In this document: positions 9,563 to 22,639 of the stretch, piece by piece
Layout: every line of letters starts with the position of its first letter
How positions within the stretch are numbered: the first letter of the stretch is position 1
IMG/VR virus record: IMGVR_UViG_3300049617_000450
Location: 1-24,027 of that record
DNA from: a virus
Reading direction: 5' to 3' (one strand)
Length of the DNA stretch: 24,027 nt
Program-made: the position numbers and the translations under genes
Notes under the pieces: model-generated
Database searches by the model: none
The model's input: only the letters and a program-made list of their open reading frames with translations
What the model was told of the DNA's origin: nothing

Positions 9563-9796
9563 ATGACCAAGACCCACACGGTCTATGACGCCATGCCGTT
9601 CGCGGATTACACGTTCCAAGAATATCCCAAGCACCTCTATCCGGACGGCCCGATGGGTCCCTATGTCGTCGTGAACGACGAGGACGAGGAGCTCGCGGCC
9701 CTGGCCGAGGCTGAAAGCCCCGCAGCGCGGGAAGGGCGGACCAAGCGGGCCAAGGCGTCGATCCAGGCCATTGCCTCCGACAACGACGAGGGGTGA
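9563..9796 (+). CDS. Small acidic protein between coat and tail accessory factor, unknown
   Basis: A 77-residue protein starting MTKTHTVYDAMPFADYTF, with AGGAGA just upstream. It is acidic in the middle (VVVNDEDEELAALAEAES) and basic afterwards (REGRTKRAKASIQA). It lies two bases outside the translation start region of the gp4-like gene and is likely co-translated with it. No domain is recognised. Small proteins in this place in phages are sometimes head-completion or decoration components, but nothing in the sequence proves that. Confidence 0.7.
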   Translation: MTKTHTVYDAMPFADYTFQEYPKHLYPDGPMGPYVVVNDEDEELAALAEAESPAAREGRTKRAKASIQAIASDNDEG

Positions 9797-9800
9797 GGTC

Positions 9801-10526
9801 ATGACCACGGCCGCCGACCTCATCGCCCAGGCGCTCAAGATCGCGGGCGTCATCGGCGTAGGCCAGGCCGCCGCCGCCGAGGACACCAACGACGCCCTGC
9901 TGCACCTGAACCAGATGATCAGCCAGTGGAACCGCAAGCGATGGCTGGTCTACCATCTGATCGACGCGGCTCTGACGTCCACCGGCGCCCAGTCCTACGC
10001 GGTGGGGACGGGGGGTGATTTCAACATTCCCAGGCCCGATCGGCTGGAGGCGGCCTATTTCCGCCAGCTGGTCAATGACGCGCCCAATCTGGTGGACTAC
10101 CCGCTGACGATCCTGGCCTCGCGCGAGGACTATAGCCGCATCCGGCTGAAGACCCTGAGCACCTGGCCGGAGACGATCTTCTACGACGCGGCCTATCCGA
10201 TGGGTCTGGTCTATCCCCATCCGGTGCCGATGGCCGGGCTGTTCGAGCTGCATCTGGTGACCAAGGACACTCTGGGCCAGTTCGCCACGCCGGCGACGGC
10301 GGTCAGCCTGCCGCCGGAATATCTGGCGGCGCTGTTGTGGAACCTGGCGGTGCGGCTGCGCTCGGCCTACCAGATGCCGCCCGACGCGGTGGCGGTGGCG
10401 GTGGCCAAGGACGCCCTGGCCGTCATCCGCAACGCCAACACCCAGATCCCGCGGTTGCGGATGCCATCGACCGTGGTTACGGGCGCGCCCTACAACATCT
10501 TCAGCGACGGGGGGACGACGGGGTGA
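9801..10526 (+). CDS. P22 gp4-like tail accessory factor (head-completion protein)
   Basis: A 241-residue protein of the P22 gp4-like packaged-DNA stabilisation family, which binds below the portal and closes the filled head. The hallmark is the helical N-terminus TAADLIAQALKIAGVIGVGQ followed by DTNDALLHLNQMISQWNRKR (residues 3-50). Further typical elements are YAVGTGGDFNIPRPDRLEAA and a C-terminal helix with YLAALLWNLAVRLRSAY. It is longer than P22 gp4 (166 residues). ATG 9801 is preceded by GGGTGAGG; an in-frame upstream ATG at 9771 lies inside the preceding gene and is less likely. It comes directly before the region where the tail hub gene follows, interrupted here by an antisense gene. 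Confidence 0.88.
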   Translation: MTTAADLIAQALKIAGVIGVGQAAAAEDTNDALLHLNQMISQWNRKRWLVYHLIDAALTSTGAQSYAVGTGGDFNIPRPDRLEAAYFRQLVNDAPNLVDYPLTILASREDYSRIRLKTLSTWPETIFYDAAYPMGLVYPHPVPMAGLFELHLVTKDTLGQFATPATAVSLPPEYLAALLWNLAVRLRSAYQMPPDAVAVAVAKDALAVIRNANTQIPRLRMPSTVVTGAPYNIFSDGGTTG

Positions 10527-10575
10527 GGGCCTTATAGATTAAAGCGTTCCGCCTGATCCCAAAGGAACACAGACC

Positions 10576-11040
10576 CTAATGTCCACTCGCAAGGAACGTC
10601 TCACAGGCCTTGCGGAGATAAGCGTCTTCAAGCTCAGGCGTGTTCTCCATGATTTCCAGTACCGTCTTGGCAAGCCCGGTCGTCGTGCGATGTAGATCAG
10701 CCTTGTTGGCCCAGGCGTCTGGTGAAATGCGCATCAGGGCGACCAGCATGTCGCCCGGATAGAAGTCACCCGAGCGAAGGGGATTCTCGCTGAGGCGTTC
10801 AATCGCCAGCAATGTCAGAAAGTCCAGGCCGATCTGCTGGCTGAGACCCAACCGCAGCTCCTCGTCAGTCAATCGGTTGAGCGGCTTCTTGCGCAGGGCA
10901 TGGGACGTCGTGACCACATATGAGTCGTAGGTGGGTTCGCCCCAACTTACGCCCTCGAGCTCTTCGAGACTGCTGTAGGGGTCGTATCGCACGCGACGCG
11001 GGCGGATCGTTCGGGGCGGTCTCTTCACCATCGGAGGCAT
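10576..11040 (-). CDS. Contact-dependent inhibition immunity-like protein (CdiI_2 type)
   Basis: A 154-residue protein and the only convincing minus-strand gene in the window. Its sequence fits the CDI immunity family I recall as CdiI_2. Matching segments are SLEELEGVSWGEP (24-36), a LRKKPL box (49-54), DEELRLGLSQQIGLDFL (59-75), LAIERLSENPL (78-88) and GDFYPGD (91-97). Such proteins bind and neutralise the C-terminal toxin domain of a CdiA-type effector in the cytoplasm. No cognate CDI toxin gene is next to it. It sits antisense between the gp4-like and gp10-like tail genes, so it is an inserted cargo (moron) gene with its own transcription. Its base composition is visibly less GC-rich than its neighbours. 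An alternative start is the ATG at 11031. The family call is from memory of motifs. Confidence 0.8.
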   Translation of the reverse strand: MPPMVKRPPRTIRPRRVRYDPYSSLEELEGVSWGEPTYDSYVVTTSHALRKKPLNRLTDEELRLGLSQQIGLDFLTLLAIERLSENPLRSGDFYPGDMLVALMRISPDAWANKADLHRTTTGLAKTVLEIMENTPELEDAYLRKACETFLASGH

Positions 11041-11150
11041 TCGCTTCGCACGGGCTTGAGCCTGGCGGTCGCGGCCGCCGTGGCAAGCGACCGGGCGGCG
11101 ACGCCGAGGGTTGCGGATTCAGAAATCTCGTTCTCAAGGAACAGCCGCCC

Positions 11151-12698
11151 ATGCGCGTCGCCCTCACCGCCGGCGCCTATCAGGCGCGCAGCCTGTCGGC
11201 CGAGGCCCAGCGCTGCATCAACCTCTATCCGGAACGTAACCCGCCCGACGCGCCGTTTCCGTTCAGCTACTATCCCACGCCGGGCCTGACGCTGCTGGCC
11301 AGTCCGACGCCGGGGGCGGGGCGGGGGCTCTATGTGGCGTCGAGCGGGGATCTCTACGCGGTCGTGGGGTCGAGCCTCTACTATGTCGATCCGACTTTCG
11401 CCCATAACCTGCTGGGGACGCTGACCTATTCGGAGGCGCTGCCGGTCACGCCGGTGTCCATGGCCGACAATGGGGTGGTCCTGGTGCTCGTGGACGGCAG
11501 TCCGGCGGGCTATAGCGTGACCCTGTCGGGGCGAAGCTGGAACGGCGCGATCTCGGATCCGGCCTTCTACGGCGCAGACCGGGTGGACTTCGTCGACACC
11601 TATTTCCTGTTCAACCGGCCGGGCACGGCGCAGTTCTATGTCTCGCCCTCGACCTGGGCGCCGGGCGTGGCGTTCAATCCCCTCTGGATCGCGGCCAAGA
11701 CCGGCGCGGCCGATCCGCTGCAGGGGGTGATATGTCAGCATCTGGAGCCCTGGCTGATCGGGACGCTCTCGTCCGAGGTCTGGATCGACTCCGGCGCCGC
11801 GGACTTTCCATTTCAACGGATGCCGGGCGTTTTCGTCGAGCATGGGGCGGTCGCGAAATACTCGATCGCCAAGCAGGATCTGTCGATCTACTGGCTGGCC
11901 CAGGATCGGCAGGGCCAGGCCCTTGTGGTGGAGGCCGCGCAGTATCAGGCCAAGCGCATCTCCAACCATGCCCTGGAGGCGCGCCTTTCGACCTATGGGA
12001 CGATCTCGGACGCGATCGGCTTCACCTACCAGCAGCAGGGCCATGTCTTCTATGTGCTGAGCTTTCCGAGCGCCGATGAGACCTGGGTCTATGACGCGGC
12101 GACGGGGCTCTGGCATCAGAGGGCATGGCTGGACGGCACGGGCGCTCTGCACCGCCATCGCGCGGGCTCCTGCGCCCAGGCCTATGGCCGGACGGTATGC
12201 CAGGACTGGCAAACGGGCGCCCTCTATGCGCTCGACCCACAGGCTTTCACGGACGCGGGCGCGGCGATCCCGCGCATCCAGAGCTTTCCGCATCTGCGCG
12301 AGGACGCCCGGCGGGTGAGCTACGGGTCGTTCATCGCGGACATGGAGACGGGGACGACGCCCTCGCTCGGCCAGGCGCCGAACCCGTCCGTGGCGTTTCA
12401 GTTCGAGGACGCGGACGGATCGACAGTGGGGTTCACCTCGCCGTCAGGGGCGCCGTTCAGCTTCTTCGGCGGCTCGCCGCTCGAGCCACAGGTGTCCTTG
12501 CGGTGGAGCGACGACGGCGGTCTGAGCTGGGGCCAGCCGGTGATGCGGGGGCTCGGGGCCGCGGGCGACACCCTGCGCACGCCGACCTGGCGGCGCACCG
12601 GAATGGCGCGGCGGCGGGTGTTCGAGCTGAGCTGGTCGTTTCCTTACGAGACGGTGCTGAACGGCGCCTATGTCGATGCGGCGCCCGCGGGAAGCTGA
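11151..12698 (+). CDS. P22 gp10-like tail hub / packaged-DNA stabilisation protein
   Basis: A 515-residue protein matching the P22 gp10-like group (472 residues in P22), which forms the hub between the gp4 ring, needle and tailspikes. The N-terminus is typical: VALTAGAYQARSLSAEAQRC then INLYPERNPPDAP, then YYPTPGLTLLASP and RGLYVASSGDLYAVVG. The rest is a repetitive beta-rich propeller-like body (for example PEWLIG-type blade turns such as EPWLIGTLSSEVWIDSG and VFYVLSFPSADETWVYDA). ATG 11151 follows AAGGA at 11136-11140. The frame continues open far upstream, but that stretch is antisense to the CdiI-like gene and is not counted. Confidence 0.87.
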   Translation: MRVALTAGAYQARSLSAEAQRCINLYPERNPPDAPFPFSYYPTPGLTLLASPTPGAGRGLYVASSGDLYAVVGSSLYYVDPTFAHNLLGTLTYSEALPVTPVSMADNGVVLVLVDGSPAGYSVTLSGRSWNGAISDPAFYGADRVDFVDTYFLFNRPGTAQFYVSPSTWAPGVAFNPLWIAAKTGAADPLQGVICQHLEPWLIGTLSSEVWIDSGAADFPFQRMPGVFVEHGAVAKYSIAKQDLSIYWLAQDRQGQALVVEAAQYQAKRISNHALEARLSTYGTISDAIGFTYQQQGHVFYVLSFPSADETWVYDAATGLWHQRAWLDGTGALHRHRAGSCAQAYGRTVCQDWQTGALYALDPQAFTDAGAAIPRIQSFPHLREDARRVSYGSFIADMETGTTPSLGQAPNPSVAFQFEDADGSTVGFTSPSGAPFSFFGGSPLEPQVSLRWSDDGGLSWGQPVMRGLGAAGDTLRTPTWRRTGMARRRVFELSWSFPYETVLNGAYVDAAPAGS

Positions 12699-15236: not shown

Positions 15237-17546
15237 ATGGCCTCAGACGCTTATGCGGCGACCGACCCGAACACATTCGACACTGGTGAGGGCTACGCGC
15301 CAACCCTGCCCGAGGGCTGGGGCGCGGGCGCCCCGGTTGCTTCCGGTTCGAGCGCGGGCGCACCCGACCTGAATGCCAATCCCTGGGCCTGGACCCGCGA
15401 TGCGCAACAGCTCGCGAAGGCCGCCGAGGCCGCGTCCGGCGTCATCCGGCCCATGGTCCACGGCCTGCTGGCCCAGCCGCCCGGGTCGCTGACCTACGAC
15501 CATGTCGCGGACGGCGTAGCGCACGTCCTCGACAATGTGCGTGTCGATCCGCGGCTGGGTCACGCCGACTGGGCGAGCATGGCCCAGAGCGCAGTGGGCA
15601 TCCTCAGCGGCATTTCGCCGGACGCGAGCGACGCGGACATCCGGCGCCGCGCGTTTCAGTTCCACACGACGCATCTGGCGAATTACCAGACGTTTCAGGC
15701 GCTGACGGGCAGGTGGGGCGTCGGGAGCGACGACGACTCTGGCCAAGACGACTCTGGCCAAGACGACTCTGGCCAAGACGACTCTGGCCAAGACGACTCT
15801 GGCCAAGACGACTCTGGCCAAGACGACTCTGGCCAAGACAACTCTGGCGCGTACGGCTCTGGCGCGGCGCCTAGCCCTTCAGATTCCCCTGGCCAAGGCG
15901 ACGCCGGCGGTTCGGCGGGATCGGTAGCGTCAAGCGCAGGCGCCGCTGACGCGCCGTCCGGAACTGGTACGGTCCAAAGCGACTTCGCGGCTGGCTCCGG
16001 CCCCTCGACCACGGCGGCGGCCTGGCCACAGAAGATCGCCGTAAGGTCATCCGGGGCGCCCGGCGCGGTCGCGCCCGCGCTTCATCCGCGTCGCCCGAAG
16101 ATTCCGCCTCGCGATCCCCACCGTCTGAGGATCGCAATGGTCGATCCCGACGGCCGACCGACGGGTCAGTTCGAAGACACCACGCCGGCCCAGAGCGAGA
16201 CATACTGGGGGTTAATTAAGAAGGGCATTTTCGATCCAAACGCACCACCAGGCAGCCCGAAACGCCCAATGGCCATCCCCTCAGACGGTCGGATGCCGAT
16301 CCATGGCGGCGACTGGTACGTCCAGCGTGATGATGGGGCGCTGAAGCAGTACGTCGATCCGGACACCCTTGAGCATACGGCCGAGGCGGCGGCCCTCAGG
16401 TACGCGGTTCCCGTCGTCGGGGACTGGATCCAGCGTCGCTATTTTCCCGATCCGCGTCTGGATGCCTTTCAGGATGGAGCCTGGGACGGCGTCACGCTCG
16501 GGACCGGCAAGTACGCCGCTTCGTTCTTCGACGCCGCACCGGCGCTCCTGACCGGCAACTTCAACGAGACCTATCAGCGGGATTTGGCGGGCCGTGAGGC
16601 GCTGGATCGCCAAGAGCGCCAAAGATACCCCTGGTTTCATTTCGCTGGCGAGGCGGCCGGCGGCGTCGCTCCGATGCTCCTCACCGATGGCCTCGCGGCT
16701 CCGGTTCGCGAAGGCGTCCTGGGATGGAGGGCTCTCCAGGGGGCGGGCGATCTCAGCCGGATTGCGCGCGCCGCGGCGCCCGCTGTTGTGGACATGGCCG
16801 CTCAGGGTACGGCGAATGCAGTCCATGCTGCGGCGGATACCCAAGGCGATCTGACCCAAAAGGCAAAGGCTCTCCCTGGCGGTTTCGTCGCGGGCGCATT
16901 GCCGGCCGGCGCAGCACATTCGGCGGGTGCGCTCCTCGACTTGGGCGCTAGCCGGCTCTTGAACGCCCGCTATGAGCCGCAGCGGCTCGCGACCTATTCG
17001 GACGACGTTCTCCCAAAGCCGGGGGAGGCGACTAGCCCGGCGGTGGACAGTCCGCTCCCAGCGCCATCAGAAGATCCTCCTCCGTCTACGACCCCGCCGT
17101 CGCTCCACGGTGATCAGCCGTCACTCCTGCAATCTCTTAAAAAGAAATCCCTTCGACTTTTATATCTTGGTAGAACCCCAAGCAAATATAGTGCTGTCGG
17201 AAATAAAGTCGTCAATCGAATGAGGACTGAAAATAAAATCTTTGGTGAAGGGCCATTGCTCCGCGGGAATCCAAACAATTTACACATAATAAACGATGAC
17301 AATAGCTTGACATTCATTGACCACAACGTCGACATGGCGCACAAACAGGCGGCGGTCAGTTGGTGGAATAGCGTAGGACGCCAATTCGGCGCTCGGAGCC
17401 GCCAAGCGCGGGAGTTTATGCTCGACGATAGCAACTATGAGCTGCAACATCGGACCCAGAACAGGTCCGAGGGCGGGGCGATGACGGAGCGCTATATGCC
17501 GCCTATAGGTCTATCGGATCCCCCTCCGCCAGGAATCTTCCCATGA
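15237..17546 (+). CDS. Ejection-type virion protein with C-terminal nuclease-like toxin domain
   Basis: A 769-residue multidomain protein. Residues 63-157 match the paralog at 3877-4515. Residues 166-200 are seven DDSGQ repeats, then a Ser/Gly/Ala linker. Residues 296-560 look like a phage ejection or internal virion protein, with YVQRDDGALKQYVDPDTL, DAFQDGAWDGVTLGTG (409-424) and FAGEAAGGVAPML (469-481). A Pro-rich linker (604-622) precedes the C-terminal domain at about 645-760. That domain reads GNKVVNRMRTENKI, DMAHKQAAVSWWNSVGRQFG, REFMLDDSNYELQHRTQNRS and YMPP, and fits the HNH/Endonuclease VII-like GH-E polymorphic-toxin group as I recall it; candidate active residues are H702, E735 and H738. 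DNA at 17131-17335 is clearly AT-rich, suggesting a swapped toxin domain. The next gene overlaps it and looks like its immunity gene. Confidence 0.8.
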   Translation: MASDAYAATDPNTFDTGEGYAPTLPEGWGAGAPVASGSSAGAPDLNANPWAWTRDAQQLAKAAEAASGVIRPMVHGLLAQPPGSLTYDHVADGVAHVLDNVRVDPRLGHADWASMAQSAVGILSGISPDASDADIRRRAFQFHTTHLANYQTFQALTGRWGVGSDDDSGQDDSGQDDSGQDDSGQDDSGQDDSGQDDSGQDNSGAYGSGAAPSPSDSPGQGDAGGSAGSVASSAGAADAPSGTGTVQSDFAAGSGPSTTAAAWPQKIAVRSSGAPGAVAPALHPRRPKIPPRDPHRLRIAMVDPDGRPTGQFEDTTPAQSETYWGLIKKGIFDPNAPPGSPKRPMAIPSDGRMPIHGGDWYVQRDDGALKQYVDPDTLEHTAEAAALRYAVPVVGDWIQRRYFPDPRLDAFQDGAWDGVTLGTGKYAASFFDAAPALLTGNFNETYQRDLAGREALDRQERQRYPWFHFAGEAAGGVAPMLLTDGLAAPVREGVLGWRALQGAGDLSRIARAAAPAVVDMAAQGTANAVHAAADTQGDLTQKAKALPGGFVAGALPAGAAHSAGALLDLGASRLLNARYEPQRLATYSDDVLPKPGEATSPAVDSPLPAPSEDPPPSTTPPSLHGDQPSLLQSLKKKSLRLLYLGRTPSKYSAVGNKVVNRMRTENKIFGEGPLLRGNPNNLHIINDDNSLTFIDHNVDMAHKQAAVSWWNSVGRQFGARSRQAREFMLDDSNYELQHRTQNRSEGGAMTERYMPPIGLSDPPPPGIFP
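15732..15836 (+). repeat. In-frame 15-bp tandem repeat, seven copies
   Basis: GACGACTCTGGCCAA is repeated seven times without change and is followed by a degenerate eighth copy (to 15851). Each unit encodes DDSGQ, so copy-number changes keep the reading frame. The tract forms an acidic flexible linker in the ejection/toxin protein. The perfect identity of the copies points to recent expansion or ongoing slippage. Confidence 0.95.
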
Positions 17547-17977
17547 CTGCACCGTCAGAACTGCCGGACGAGTTATACGAGAAAATTCAGTCCCACTGCG
17601 CCAAGGGGGAGGCTTTCCTCGAGGCGGACGACCTTAGCCAGGCCTTGAAGGAATATCGCCGGGCGTGGGACCTGATACCGACGCCCAAGGAAATCTGGCC
17701 GGCGGCGACCTGGGTCCTGGTCGCCATCGGCGACGCCTACTTTCTCGCCGGCGACATCGAGAAGTCTTACGCCGCGCTAGGCGACGCGGTTCGCTGCGCC
17801 GAAGGCTTCGGCAATCCGTTCATTCACATGAGGCTCGGCCAAGCCCTCTACGAACTCGGCGATCTTGACGCTTCGGCGGAGGAGCTCATCCGCGCCTACG
17901 CCCTGGAAGGGCCGGCGGTCTTCGAGCATGAAGACGCGAAGTACCTCAAGTTCCTTAAGACGCGAGCGGCCTTGTAG
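17543..17977 (+). CDS. TPR-type immunity protein, probable partner of the upstream toxin domain
   Basis: A 144-residue helical protein whose ATG overlaps the toxin stop by four bases (ATGA). It fits the tetratricopeptide-type immunity proteins found directly downstream of polymorphic-toxin C-termini. Matching segments are EKIQSHCAKGEAFLEADDLS, ALKEYRRAWDLIPTP, WVLVAIGDAYFLAGDIEKS, then NPFIHMRLGQALYELGD and RAYALEGPAVFEHEDAKYLK. Two to three TPR-like helix pairs are visible (around 17-50, 55-85 and 90-125). There is no signal peptide, so it acts in the cytoplasm. The tight coupling and the family resemblance make neutralisation of the nuclease-like domain the best reading. Direct binding is inference. 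Confidence 0.82.
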   Translation: MTAPSELPDELYEKIQSHCAKGEAFLEADDLSQALKEYRRAWDLIPTPKEIWPAATWVLVAIGDAYFLAGDIEKSYAALGDAVRCAEGFGNPFIHMRLGQALYELGDLDASAEELIRAYALEGPAVFEHEDAKYLKFLKTRAAL

Positions 17978-19258: not shown

Positions 19259-20482
19259 ATGACCTCGCCCGCCGTCGCCACCACCTTCGCCGACCTGCCG
19301 TCACCGGCCTCGATCGGCCTGCTCGACGCCGCCTTCGGCCAGGCCCTGGGCGCGGCGCCCTTCTGGGGCGTGGACAATTTCGGCGCCAAGGGCGACGGCG
19401 TCACCGACGACAGCGCGGCGGTGAACGCCTGGCTGGCCCAGCTGGCTCAGAGCGGGGGCGTCGGCGTCATGACCGCCGGCAAGACCTATTATTGCGCAAA
19501 GCAGGCCGTGCTGAATCTGAACGACGGCCCGGCCCAGGCCAATATCCTGATCCTGGCCTATGGCGCGATCCTGACCACGGGCGCCAACGCGATCTATGGC
19601 CTGTTGATCGAGGGCGACAATATCCCCAACCGCCAGACCGTGATGGGCTTGACGATCAACCAGCGGGGATCCGGCGGGGCGGGCGCCGGGACCAACGCCG
19701 CGCTCGGCGGGTTCGGCCTCTCGGGGACGGGGTCGGTGTCGCTGGTGGACTGCTCGGTCATCGCCAATGGGGTGCCGTTTACGGGGAACCAGCAGACGGA
19801 TTATGCGGCGTTTGATTTGTTCGAGACGACTCCCGGTATCGACACAACAGGATGCGTTTGGACGAAAATTTTGCGTTGCTGGGTTCGCAAGGAATCAGGT
19901 TCCGACATCGGAGATATACCATATGGTGTCCGCCTTCGTGGAGCCGCAAACTCAACCACAATAGAGCATTGTCAAATTACAACACAAGGAAGTAATGATG
20001 GATTTCTGACATCGGCAATATTGATTACAATTCATAGTGGTCAGACCTATGTGCCCAACGCCATAACCGTTGCGCACAATGATTTCGAAAGCGTAGGCTA
20101 TGCTGTTCAGGTAAACGCGCCAAATGGATACTGTACTACGGCATTTGAAGCATTTGGGAATCGATTTGAATCGATTTACGCGGCAGCATTTTATTTTATC
20201 GGAAGCGCATCAATATCCCTCGTGCCGCCGCAGATCTGGGGCGGAGCACCGCTATTTGGTCAACTTGGATTTGCTGCGACAGGGTCAATTTTGGCAACGT
20301 CGAATGTCATTACATCGGTTTCATCGTCAAACTGGCAGCAGTTGTTCGTTGGTCAAAACTTACAGGGGGCCGGCATACCGATAAATGCGGTTGTGACGGG
20401 GTTTACTCATCGTTGCAAACTATTACAATTTCTGCACTGCCAACGGTTAATGCCTCTAATGTGTCGATTGTTTCAGAAGTAA
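19259..20482 (+). CDS. Tailspike, N-terminal part (pectate-lyase-type beta-helix), frameshifted
   Basis: This frame encodes 407 residues. Residues 41-51 (FGAKGDGVTDD) followed by SAAVNAWLAQL are the classic start of a phage tailspike pectate-lyase-like beta-helix, which binds or cleaves surface polysaccharide. Repeated short strands follow. The true product continues in the -1 frame: near position 20400, the GGGG run at 20398-20401 lacks one G, and adding it restores VVTGVYSSLQTITISAL. The last 27 residues here (after INAVVTGF) are therefore out of frame. DNA from about 19810 onward turns AT-rich, while the first 550 bases match the GC-rich phage, so the receptor-binding half looks swapped in. 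The restored tailspike would be about 622 residues. Confidence 0.82.
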   Translation: MTSPAVATTFADLPSPASIGLLDAAFGQALGAAPFWGVDNFGAKGDGVTDDSAAVNAWLAQLAQSGGVGVMTAGKTYYCAKQAVLNLNDGPAQANILILAYGAILTTGANAIYGLLIEGDNIPNRQTVMGLTINQRGSGGAGAGTNAALGGFGLSGTGSVSLVDCSVIANGVPFTGNQQTDYAAFDLFETTPGIDTTGCVWTKILRCWVRKESGSDIGDIPYGVRLRGAANSTTIEHCQITTQGSNDGFLTSAILITIHSGQTYVPNAITVAHNDFESVGYAVQVNAPNGYCTTAFEAFGNRFESIYAAAFYFIGSASISLVPPQIWGGAPLFGQLGFAATGSILATSNVITSVSSSNWQQLFVGQNLQGAGIPINAVVTGFTHRCKLLQFLHCQRLMPLMCRLFQK

Positions 20483-21126
20483 TGTGGGTTTCAAATCCGC
20501 TGGGAATACCAATTAACAATTTTACACCGGACGGCCAAAATTTACCTGGCGCGGAGTGGTCAGTTACAAATTATAACGGTATGACCGCCAGCGCTTTGAG
20601 TGGTTCGGCTCATGCGATGAATTTTGGGTTCACGGCCAACAGCAACAGAGGAATTAGTGCTTACGACATAGGATCTGGAAATAGTCAATTTCAAATTGTT
20701 AGTAATCAATGGGGTGGTTCATATTATTCAATTGATTTCCAAGCTGGCGGTGGTGTTTCCCCTCGGGATCTAAGGTTGCGATGCGGATATAATATAAATG
20801 TGAATAGTACGGGAGATAGATCGACGTATTCACAAGGTCATATTGTATTTGCCGATTATAATGGTGGCTCAAACAGCCAATTTGGTCATTTATGGATGGA
20901 TCAAAGCGGAGTACCTAGTTTTGTTACCCAGTCTGTATATTCTGCTAATCTTGGATCAGATAATCCAACGGGCCGAGTGCGACTACAATCAACTTTAAAT
21001 GGAATTGCCAGGCCATCTACCCCTATTGTAGGGCAAATATTTTTCGATTTGAATTTAAATCTGCCGATATGGTGCAAGAGTTCAGCGGGCCCAGTTTGGA
21101 TAAATGCTTCCGGAACAGTTGTATAA
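20413..21126 (+). CDS. Tailspike, C-terminal part in the -1 frame
   Basis: An open frame of 237 codons starting at a TTG that is almost certainly internal. It continues the upstream tailspike after the one-base frameshift, since SLQTITISALPTVNA joins seamlessly to the preceding beta-helix. Visible pieces are NNFTPDGQNLPGAEWSV, SQFQIVSNQWGGSYYSIDFQ and a closing GQIFFDLNLNLPIWCKSS, a common terminus of phage tail proteins. Composition is strongly AT-rich, unlike the phage backbone. If the frameshift is real, translation of this half would need ribosomal slippage, a reversion, or independent initiation; no ribosome-binding site was seen. Confidence 0.7.
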   Translation: MQTITISALPTVNASNVSIVSEVMWVSNPLGIPINNFTPDGQNLPGAEWSVTNYNGMTASALSGSAHAMNFGFTANSNRGISAYDIGSGNSQFQIVSNQWGGSYYSIDFQAGGGVSPRDLRLRCGYNINVNSTGDRSTYSQGHIVFADYNGGSNSQFGHLWMDQSGVPSFVTQSVYSANLGSDNPTGRVRLQSTLNGIARPSTPIVGQIFFDLNLNLPIWCKSSAGPVWINASGTVV

Positions 21127-21135
21127 CAATAAATC

Positions 21136-22263
21136 ATGACCCGTCCAAATATTAGCTCAAAAGTAATAAATGATGACGCAAAACAGGAATTAATTTCATT
21201 TGATGTTATTCATTCGGCGGATGGTCATCTATTGCATATAGACGCGATTCGATTTATGGCGTCGTTTGGAATTATAATATTACACGCAAGGGGTCTAATT
21301 GTTGCTGGTCCGCAGTTTCAATTTATATTAAATTCAACAAATTCATTTCGATTATTTGTTGATTTATTTTTTGGGATATCAGGATTCATTATTTCATATA
21401 TTTACAGCAAAAAAATGAGGACGACAGACGAATATTTTGTGTTTTTGAAAAGGAGAATTGGTAGGCTGCTGCCTTTGCACTGGGCGACTTTGTTGCTATT
21501 TTTTTTCATTGGTGTATTCGTCAATAATCATTTTATAACAGCTAATAATGCATCATTATATGATAATAAGTGTCTTTTACAGAATGCTTTCCTTTTGCAC
21601 TCCGCGGGGACGTGTAATCATCTGTCTTTTAACGCGCCAAGTTGGTCTATTAGTGCGGAATTCATCGTTTACCTGTTTTTCCCCGCTATTTTGATAATTA
21701 CGCTGAGAAGCATTATCGTTGAATGTTCGATTTTATCATTGTTTATTATCTACGCATTAAAAGATGACTCACATTTTTTTTATAGAACATTTGACTTTGG
21801 TATAATGAGAGCCCTCGCGGGATTTGCATTTGGCATGATTGTCTTCAAATATAGAACTATTTTAGGACGACTGCCATTTGGAAATATTCCCTTTATTTTA
21901 TGCGTGTGCTTTTTTTTGATTGGAAGTGTTTTCCGGTGGCCGGAGGTAATCCTATTAATACTTATTATGGGAATTCTCATATTCGCTGCTGCGGCAGACG
22001 TTAGTGGCGCAAAAGCATCAAATCTAAGAATTATTGCCGCGCTCGGAAACCTAACATATTCAAGTTATATGATTCACCAGATCATATTAACATTCATTGT
22101 AAGCGTATTGGCGGTAAAAATTTGCCATTTTTCTCCATTCCTTCAAAATTTAATGACAATATTTGCGATAATTGTGGTTTGGCCATTATCATATTTTTCG
22201 TATTGTTTTTTTGAACGCCCCGCAAGATCGTGGATCGACTCAGTTAATATGAGATGGAACTAA
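21136..22263 (+). CDS. Membrane O-acyltransferase (acyltransferase-3 family)
   Basis: A 375-residue integral membrane protein with many hydrophobic segments, for example ASFGIIILHARGLIVAG (42-58) and FVDLFFGISGFIISYIY (74-90). Family landmarks are HIDAIRFMASFGIIILHA with conserved His50, the R-x2-R-x2-PLHW element KRRIGRLLPLHW (105-116), NAPSWSISAEF (166-176) and the late SSYMIHQ. Such proteins acylate sugars of lipopolysaccharide or capsule in the inner membrane. In phages this often changes the O-antigen and blocks superinfection. It lies nine bases after the tailspike frame and shares its AT-rich composition. ATG 21136 lacks a clear ribosome-binding site, so translation may be weak or coupled. 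The sugar substrate is unknown. Confidence 0.85.
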   Translation: MTRPNISSKVINDDAKQELISFDVIHSADGHLLHIDAIRFMASFGIIILHARGLIVAGPQFQFILNSTNSFRLFVDLFFGISGFIISYIYSKKMRTTDEYFVFLKRRIGRLLPLHWATLLLFFFIGVFVNNHFITANNASLYDNKCLLQNAFLLHSAGTCNHLSFNAPSWSISAEFIVYLFFPAILIITLRSIIVECSILSLFIIYALKDDSHFFYRTFDFGIMRALAGFAFGMIVFKYRTILGRLPFGNIPFILCVCFFLIGSVFRWPEVILLILIMGILIFAAAADVSGAKASNLRIIAALGNLTYSSYMIHQIILTFIVSVLAVKICHFSPFLQNLMTIFAIIVVWPLSYFSYCFFERPARSWIDSVNMRWN

Positions 22264-22330
22264 GCAAGCAAGAGTTCAAATATTCTTACATGCAAAATAT
22301 TCTCTTACATCGAAACGTTGGAGGCCTAAC

Positions 22331-22639
22331 ATGACCGCCTGGGGACCGCAGGAATGGGCGGCGGTGGGCGCGCTCGGGGTGGGTCTGGTCGGGGCGGTGG
22401 GCGCCGGGGTGGTGCACGCCATCCGCGTCTCCTACCGCTTCGGGCGCTCCGACGAAGAGCAATCCAATTTGAGGGCGAGGCTAGAGAAGCTCGAGCTGCA
22501 GGCGGACCTGGCGGAAGCGCACCGGGCCGGTATCGAGGTGCTGAAGGCGGCGCTTCAGAGCGTCCGTGAACAGCTGGCCGAGGTGCGCCAGGATCTCAAG
22601 CACCTGATGGGCGTACGGCCGACCTCGCCGCGCCGTTGA
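22331..22639 (+). CDS. Membrane-anchored coiled-coil protein, lysis cassette
   Basis: A 102-residue protein with GGAGG at about 22320-22324 before the ATG. Residues 11-33 (AVGALGVGLVGAVGAGVVH) form one membrane helix. Residues 42-95 are a long charged coiled coil (EEQSNLRARLEKLELQADLA and AALQSVREQLAEVRQDLKHL). The architecture fits an inner-membrane spanin-like or holin-associated protein next to an endolysin gene. No outer-membrane spanin partner is recognised. GC-rich phage composition resumes here. Confidence 0.65.
   Translation: MTAWGPQEWAAVGALGVGLVGAVGAGVVHAIRVSYRFGRSDEEQSNLRARLEKLELQADLAEAHRAGIEVLKAALQSVREQLAEVRQDLKHLMGVRPTSPRR

What the first reader, a model, noticed from the sequence alone, without database searches (positions are those of the whole stretch)
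10576..11040. Antisense orphan CDI-type immunity gene inside the tail operon
A CdiI_2-like immunity protein is encoded against all other genes, between the gp4-like and gp10-like tail genes, with lower GC and no cognate toxin nearby. It may protect lysogens or infected cells from bacterial CDI toxins, or from a toxin carried by related phages. With the TPR gene this makes two immunity-type genes in one phage structural region.
Basis: partly seen in the sequence, partly recalled or inferred. Interest (0 to 1): 0.8.

Follow-up and report, generated by a model that had tools for sequence, protein, structure and literature searches.

The report
Orphan antitoxin immunity gene in phage
A bacterial virus carries, inserted backwards between two of its particle-building genes, a lone gene for a protein of the kind bacteria use to neutralise a rival's RNA-cutting toxin, and elsewhere it carries its own predicted toxin with a matching protective gene.

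Summary
The minus-strand ORF 10576-11040 (154 aa) is a real gene of a CDI-immunity family, but the family is CdiI_3 (PF18616, 79.5 bits), not CdiI_2. A profile of its homologues matches the solved UPEC-536 CdiI (5j5v, E 1e-13), and the predicted fold matches the same protein (Z 14.3). It lies between a gp4-like adaptor gene and a head-closure (gp10-like) gene of a P22-like podophage contig. A sister phage (coat 94%, head closure 77% identical) has those two genes adjacent, so the gene is a recent, lower-GC insertion. More distant relatives carry an HNH endonuclease at the same junction. In actinobacteria, 11 of 80 CdiI_3 genes lie 16-68 nt after an Ntox28 tRNase toxin; the rest, including those in Alphaproteobacteria, are orphans, as here. 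No Ntox28 was found in the window or related phages. Most likely it is an accessory immunity gene that protects the infected or lysogenic cell from Ntox28-type toxins; expression and protection are untested. The TPR gene at 17543-17977 is not an orphan: it overlaps the end of a 769-aa protein with a GH-E-like nuclease C-terminus, a pairing that recurs elsewhere.

The parts
10576..11040 (-). CdiI_3-family (PF18616, UPEC-536 CdiI-like) orphan immunity gene, 154 aa; residues 24-154 match the family, and the basic first ~20 residues are an extension or a misassigned start
   Evidence: Pfam; profile match to 5j5v_C E 1e-13; AlphaFold pLDDT 91.7; fold match Z 14.3
10511..11148 (.). segment without counterpart in the sister phage (insertion; DNA homology ends at 10510 and resumes at 11149)
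   Evidence: blastn/tblastn against G001; alignment
9771..10526 (+). gp4-like head-tail adaptor gene flanking the insert
   Evidence: phrog_637 Ad3, phrog_12985, SU10_adaptor
11151..12698 (+). head-closure (Hc3, P22 gp10-like) gene flanking the insert; start set by conservation
   Evidence: phrog_578 E 2e-89; homologues align from its first residue
15237..17546 (+). 769-aa accessory protein with a C-terminal GH-E-like (HNH/Endo VII) nuclease domain (last ~130 aa, GC 0.50); predicted polymorphic toxin
   Evidence: PF14410 weak hit; homologous domains in Rhizobium and Ruminococcus-phage proteins; absent from sister
17543..17977 (+). TPR protein overlapping the toxin stop (ATGA); predicted cognate immunity of the GH-E-like toxin
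   Evidence: the same pair in L114 and L113; relatives in polymorphic-toxin/polyimmunity loci

Best explanation
The gene is an accessory ('moron') immunity gene acquired by a P22-like podophage at a junction between two virion genes. Its product has the all-helical fold of UPEC-536 CdiI and would bind an incoming Ntox28-type toxin domain, cover its active site (Trp, His, Glu) and stop tRNA cleavage. It carries no toxin of its own, so its benefit would be to keep the infected or lysogenic cell alive and productive when neighbours, or other mobile elements, deliver Ntox28 toxins. Shown: family, predicted fold, insertion, absence of a toxin in the record, and coupling of the family to Ntox28 in actinobacteria. 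Inferred: expression, Ntox28 as the target, inhibition, and benefit to phage or host.
For: PF18616 hit. [quoted passage not shown] Fold match Z 14.3 over 121 residues. Eleven of 80 genomic homologues lie 16-68 nt downstream of an Ntox28 toxin on the same strand (Pfam Ntox28 in 7 neighbours), and those toxins keep a PW-D-H-V-x-E motif that fits catalytic W176/H178/E181 of UPEC-536 (PMC9086364). Clean insertion relative to the sister phage and an HNH gene at the same junction in other relatives mark it as accessory. Conserved family residues kept. A second phage contig, L099, also carries CdiI_3 in its head module, downstream of a MuF gene without a toxin domain.
Against: No transcript evidence, and no promoter-like or terminator-like site near the gene. 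The protein lies outside the Ntox28-linked clade, on a long branch, so its target could differ; CDI immunity is highly specific and closely related CdiI proteins have not been exchangeable (PMC9086364). In Alphaproteobacteria the Ntox28 genes found lack CdiI_3, and the CdiI_3 genes found lack Ntox28.
Confidence: 0.55

Rival explanations
1. Neutral passenger: a bacterial orphan immunity gene captured by illegitimate recombination, transiently intact and without benefit to the phage.
For: Absent from the sister phage; almost no other phages carry the family; antisense with no detectable promoter; orphan CdiI_3 genes are common in bacteria, so capture by chance is easy.
Against: Intact ORF with conserved residues and a confident fold. 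A second unrelated phage carries the family in its head module. Phage genomes tend to lose useless DNA quickly (general knowledge).
Confidence: 0.25
2. Immunity against toxins delivered by other phages or prophages (phage-phage exclusion): related phages carry exchangeable toxin domains on injected virion proteins, and this gene answers an Ntox28 version.
For: This phage has its own GH-E-like toxin plus TPR immunity pair next to an ejection-protein gene. L099 has CdiI_3 where MuF-toxin immunity genes lie (MuF toxins: PMC5576092).
Against: No Ntox28 found in any related phage record, in IMG/VR by pattern scan, or in named phages; these scans reach close relatives mainly. The toxin protein of this phage is not shown to be in the virion.
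Confidence: 0.12
3. Repurposed immunity fold: the protein binds a host or phage RNase or another factor unrelated to Ntox28, for example a host defence nuclease.
For: Long branch, outside the toxin-linked clade; most family members have no Ntox28 beside them.
Against: Nearly all invariant family positions retained; no match to any PADLOC model, so no known defence link.
Confidence: 0.08

Closest known systems
CdiI of UPEC 536 (PDB 5J5V; Pfam CdiI_3 PF18616), immunity to the Ntox28 tRNase CdiA-CT
   Same: Profile family, all-helical fold (Z 14.3, 20% identity over 121 residues), size
   Different: No CdiA, CdiB or Ntox28 toxin beside it; sits antisense in a phage virion operon; ~20-residue N-terminal extension; about 20-25% identity only
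Orphan immunity genes and polyimmunity loci of bacteria (PMC3482391, PMC9086364, PMC7400221)
   Same: Immunity gene without its toxin, thought to protect against foreign toxins
   Different: Those are chromosomal or at cdi loci; this one is a single gene carried by a phage
MuF and other phage-encoded polymorphic toxin-immunity systems (PMC5576092, PMC8092301, PMC11699363)
   Same: Phage genomes carrying toxin-immunity genes; the GH-E/TPR pair of this window resembles them
   Different: The CdiI_3 gene has no toxin; the GH-E-like protein has no MuF or WXG domain by Pfam; no published example of a lone CdiI_3 gene in a phage was found here

Membership tests
CdiI_3 (PF18616) / UPEC-536 CdiI | Profile match above the curated cut-off over the whole domain | tested here: met
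   79.5 bits against 28, profile positions 1-91 of 95
CdiI_3 (PF18616) / UPEC-536 CdiI | Fold of the solved family member | tested here: met
   Foldseek top hits 5j5v_F and 5j5v_C, prob 1.00; VIA-align Z 14.3, rmsd 2.5, 121 aligned, next entry 9.8
CdiI_3 (PF18616) / UPEC-536 CdiI | Gene directly downstream of an Ntox28 toxin | tested here: not met
   No Ntox28 in the record. The feature was seen for only 11 of 80 family members, so it does not define the family
CdiI_3 (PF18616) / UPEC-536 CdiI | Binds and neutralises an Ntox28 toxin | not testable with these tools
   Needs a binding or protection assay
CdiI_2 (PF18593) | Profile match | tested here: not met
   No match in the record; only CdiI_3 listed
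Complete CDI system | cdiB-cdiA genes with cdiI | tested here: not met
   All neighbours are phage virion or accessory genes; the record is a phage fragment
Phage polymorphic toxin of the MuF type (for the 769-aa protein) | N-terminal Phage_Mu_F domain | tested here: not met
   Only a weak C-terminal GH-E match and one spurious low-complexity match for window:15237-17546
GH-E polymorphic toxin (PF14410) | GH-E nuclease domain at the C-terminus | tested here: inconclusive
   E 0.005, 17.8 bits, below the cut-off of 25; homologous domains at the C-termini of two proteins followed by the same TPR family

The most novel reading that the evidence does not exclude
Podophages take part in a polymorphic-toxin exchange of their own: exchangeable nuclease domains ride on injected accessory proteins (here GH-E with TPR immunity), and phages collect orphan immunity genes such as this CdiI_3 to survive the Ntox28 versions of competing phages or prophages, so that superinfection outcome depends on immunity gene content.
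Probability: 0.12. Interest if true: 0.75.

Novelty: new variant of a known kind. Interest (0 to 1): 0.5.

Why it matters
Orphan immunity genes are known in bacterial chromosomes; a lone one carried by a phage inside its virion operon would mean phages can hand out resistance to interbacterial toxins, making prophage content a hidden variable in bacterial competition. That the same phage carries its own predicted toxin-immunity pair makes the idea directly testable. The neighbourhood survey also ties CdiI_3 to Ntox28 toxins with type VII signal domains, outside classical CDI, and shows that most CdiI_3 genes have no detectable Ntox28 beside them.

Tried and rejected
CdiI_2 membership: no match. 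Ntox28 in the window or related phages: none. More phages with CdiI_3: single-protein scan none, two alignment scans found only L099/L117, the same contig; named phages none; BFVD fold search no convincing match. These scans are pattern-based or limited in reach and do not prove absence. Relatives of the middle part of the 769-aa protein in viral contigs: none; whole-protein search in 385 alphaproteobacterial genomes gave only low-complexity or marginal hits. Its toxin domain in viral contigs: none. Host: a search with the coat protein in 385 alphaproteobacterial genomes found at best 43% identity, so the host is unassigned. Defence-system models: none. Promoters and terminators: none. Terminal repeats at the insertion: only short chance-level repeats, so no integration mechanism is proposed. 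The first structure job used L099 as its lead sequence by oversight; its result was not collected.

Full report
What is there. The window is a 24,027-base virus record from a P22-like podophage: terminase, portal, scaffold, P22-type coat, head-tail adaptor, head closure, collar, ejection protein and tail spike genes, all on the plus strand. Between the adaptor gene (stop 10526) and the head-closure gene (true start about 11151) lies an intact minus-strand ORF, 10576-11040, 154 aa. ORF length is no evidence here, since 21 minus-strand ORFs of at least 150 aa occur in the window. Homology is: Pfam CdiI_3, PF18616, 79.5 bits against a cut-off of 28.

Family and fold. Among PDB sequences the only significant relative is the immunity protein CdiI of entry 5j5v, E 0.001 with the single sequence and 1e-13 with a 36-member profile. 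AlphaFold gives a confident all-helical model, pLDDT 91.7. Foldseek ranks the two 5j5v CdiI chains first with probability 1.00, though its E-value is only 0.003, and VIA-align gives Z 14.3 over 121 residues against 9.8 for the next entry. 5j5v is the complex of the UPEC-536 CdiA-CT toxin, CdiI and CysK. The toxin is an Ntox28 tRNase with active-site residues D155, W176, H178 and E181, and CdiI contacts W176, H178 and E181 (PMC9086364).

Coupling of the family to Ntox28. Of 80 homologues fetched from genomes, 11 lie 16-68 nt downstream of an Ntox28 domain on the same strand, all in actinomycetes; none of the others has an Ntox28 detectable with a profile built from the actinomycete toxins. Pfam finds Ntox28 in 7 and a T7SS signal domain in 5 of 60 neighbouring genes. 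The toxins keep a PW-D-H-V-x-E motif. In 385 alphaproteobacterial genomes, CdiI_3 occurs in 4 and Ntox28 in 2, with no overlap. The alphaproteobacterial CdiI_3 genes are orphans, one broken by a stop, and the gene after the L118 Ntox28 is of another kind. Being an orphan is therefore common in this family. In a tree the window protein sits on a long branch near planctomycete, Hyphomicrobiales and groundwater sequences, outside the toxin-linked clade. So Ntox28 is the best guess for the target, not a demonstrated one.

It is an insertion. A sister phage (IMG/VR 3300049255_000575, G001) with 94% identical coat, 80% adaptor and 77% head-closure proteins has the two flanking genes adjacent; DNA homology stops at 10510 and resumes at 11149, and it has no CdiI_3. 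More distant relatives have an HNH endonuclease gene at the same junction, so the junction accepts cargo repeatedly. The gene has lower GC (0.594, GC3 0.72) than its neighbours (0.67-0.68; 0.86-0.90). No promoter-like or terminator-like site was found near it.

How rare it is. No named phage matches. IMG/VR scans found one other contig, L099, where CdiI_3 lies on the sense strand after a MuF gene without a toxin domain, an unknown gene and a HIT-domain gene. In MuF-toxin phages the immunity gene follows muf (PMC5576092), so L099 may hold an orphan at that place. The scans use short patterns and can miss relatives.

The TPR gene. It is of that kind but probably not an orphan. It overlaps the stop codon of a 769-aa protein (15237-17546) whose last ~130 residues resemble the GH-E HNH nuclease domain (PF14410, E 0.005, below cut-off) and have low GC (0.50). 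The same domain followed by homologous TPR proteins occurs in a Rhizobium plasmid protein (540 aa, two TPR genes) and in a Ruminococcus phage protein (alignments). Other relatives of the TPR protein lie in loci with DUF4150, GAD-like, HINT-type polymorphic toxin and SMI1/KNR4 genes. [quoted passage not shown] Both genes are missing from the sister phage. That the 769-aa protein is in the virion is not shown; it follows the ejection-protein gene.

Mechanism. Best reading: an acquired accessory immunity gene whose product caps the active site of an Ntox28-type tRNase and so protects the cell that houses the phage. Family, predicted fold, insertion and lack of a toxin in the record are shown; expression, target and benefit are inferred. 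Rivals are a neutral passenger, a part in phage-phage exclusion, and a repurposed fold. Interest is moderate: the parts are known, but a lone polymorphic-toxin immunity gene carried antisense in a phage virion operon, in a phage with its own toxin-immunity pair, is a combination not met in the searches made here (papers searched).

Noticed in passing
window 15237-17977: Predicted polymorphic toxin (769 aa, GH-E-like HNH nuclease C-terminus) with overlapping TPR immunity gene, inserted after the ejection-protein gene and absent from the sister phage; the pairing recurs in a Rhizobium plasmid and a Ruminococcus phage.
   Followed up: partly
window 21136-22263: AT-rich (35% GC) acyltransferase / O-antigen acetylase-like gene (PF01757, phrog_3333) beside the tail spike, not found in the sister phage; possible serotype-conversion cargo.
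   Followed up: no
window 19600-22400: GC falls from about 67% to 33-48% across the spike C-terminus, 20413-21126 and the acyltransferase: a mosaic receptor-binding and conversion block.
   Followed up: no
L004 4498-5010, L010 4498-5016: HNH endonuclease gene at the same adaptor/head-closure junction in other phages of this group: a recurrent insertion site.
   Followed up: partly
L099 3851-6375: Phage head module with a MuF gene lacking a toxin domain, then an unknown gene, a HIT-domain gene and CdiI_3: a possible orphan immunity cassette at the usual MuF-immunity position.
   Followed up: partly
L118 920-2412: Alphaproteobacterial Ntox28 gene followed by an unrelated 189-aa gene rather than CdiI_3: Ntox28 toxins may have more than one immunity family.
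   Followed up: no
L121 1369-1623: Alphaproteobacterial orphan CdiI_3 broken by an in-frame stop in a genome that also holds a distant P22-type coat gene on another contig.
   Followed up: no
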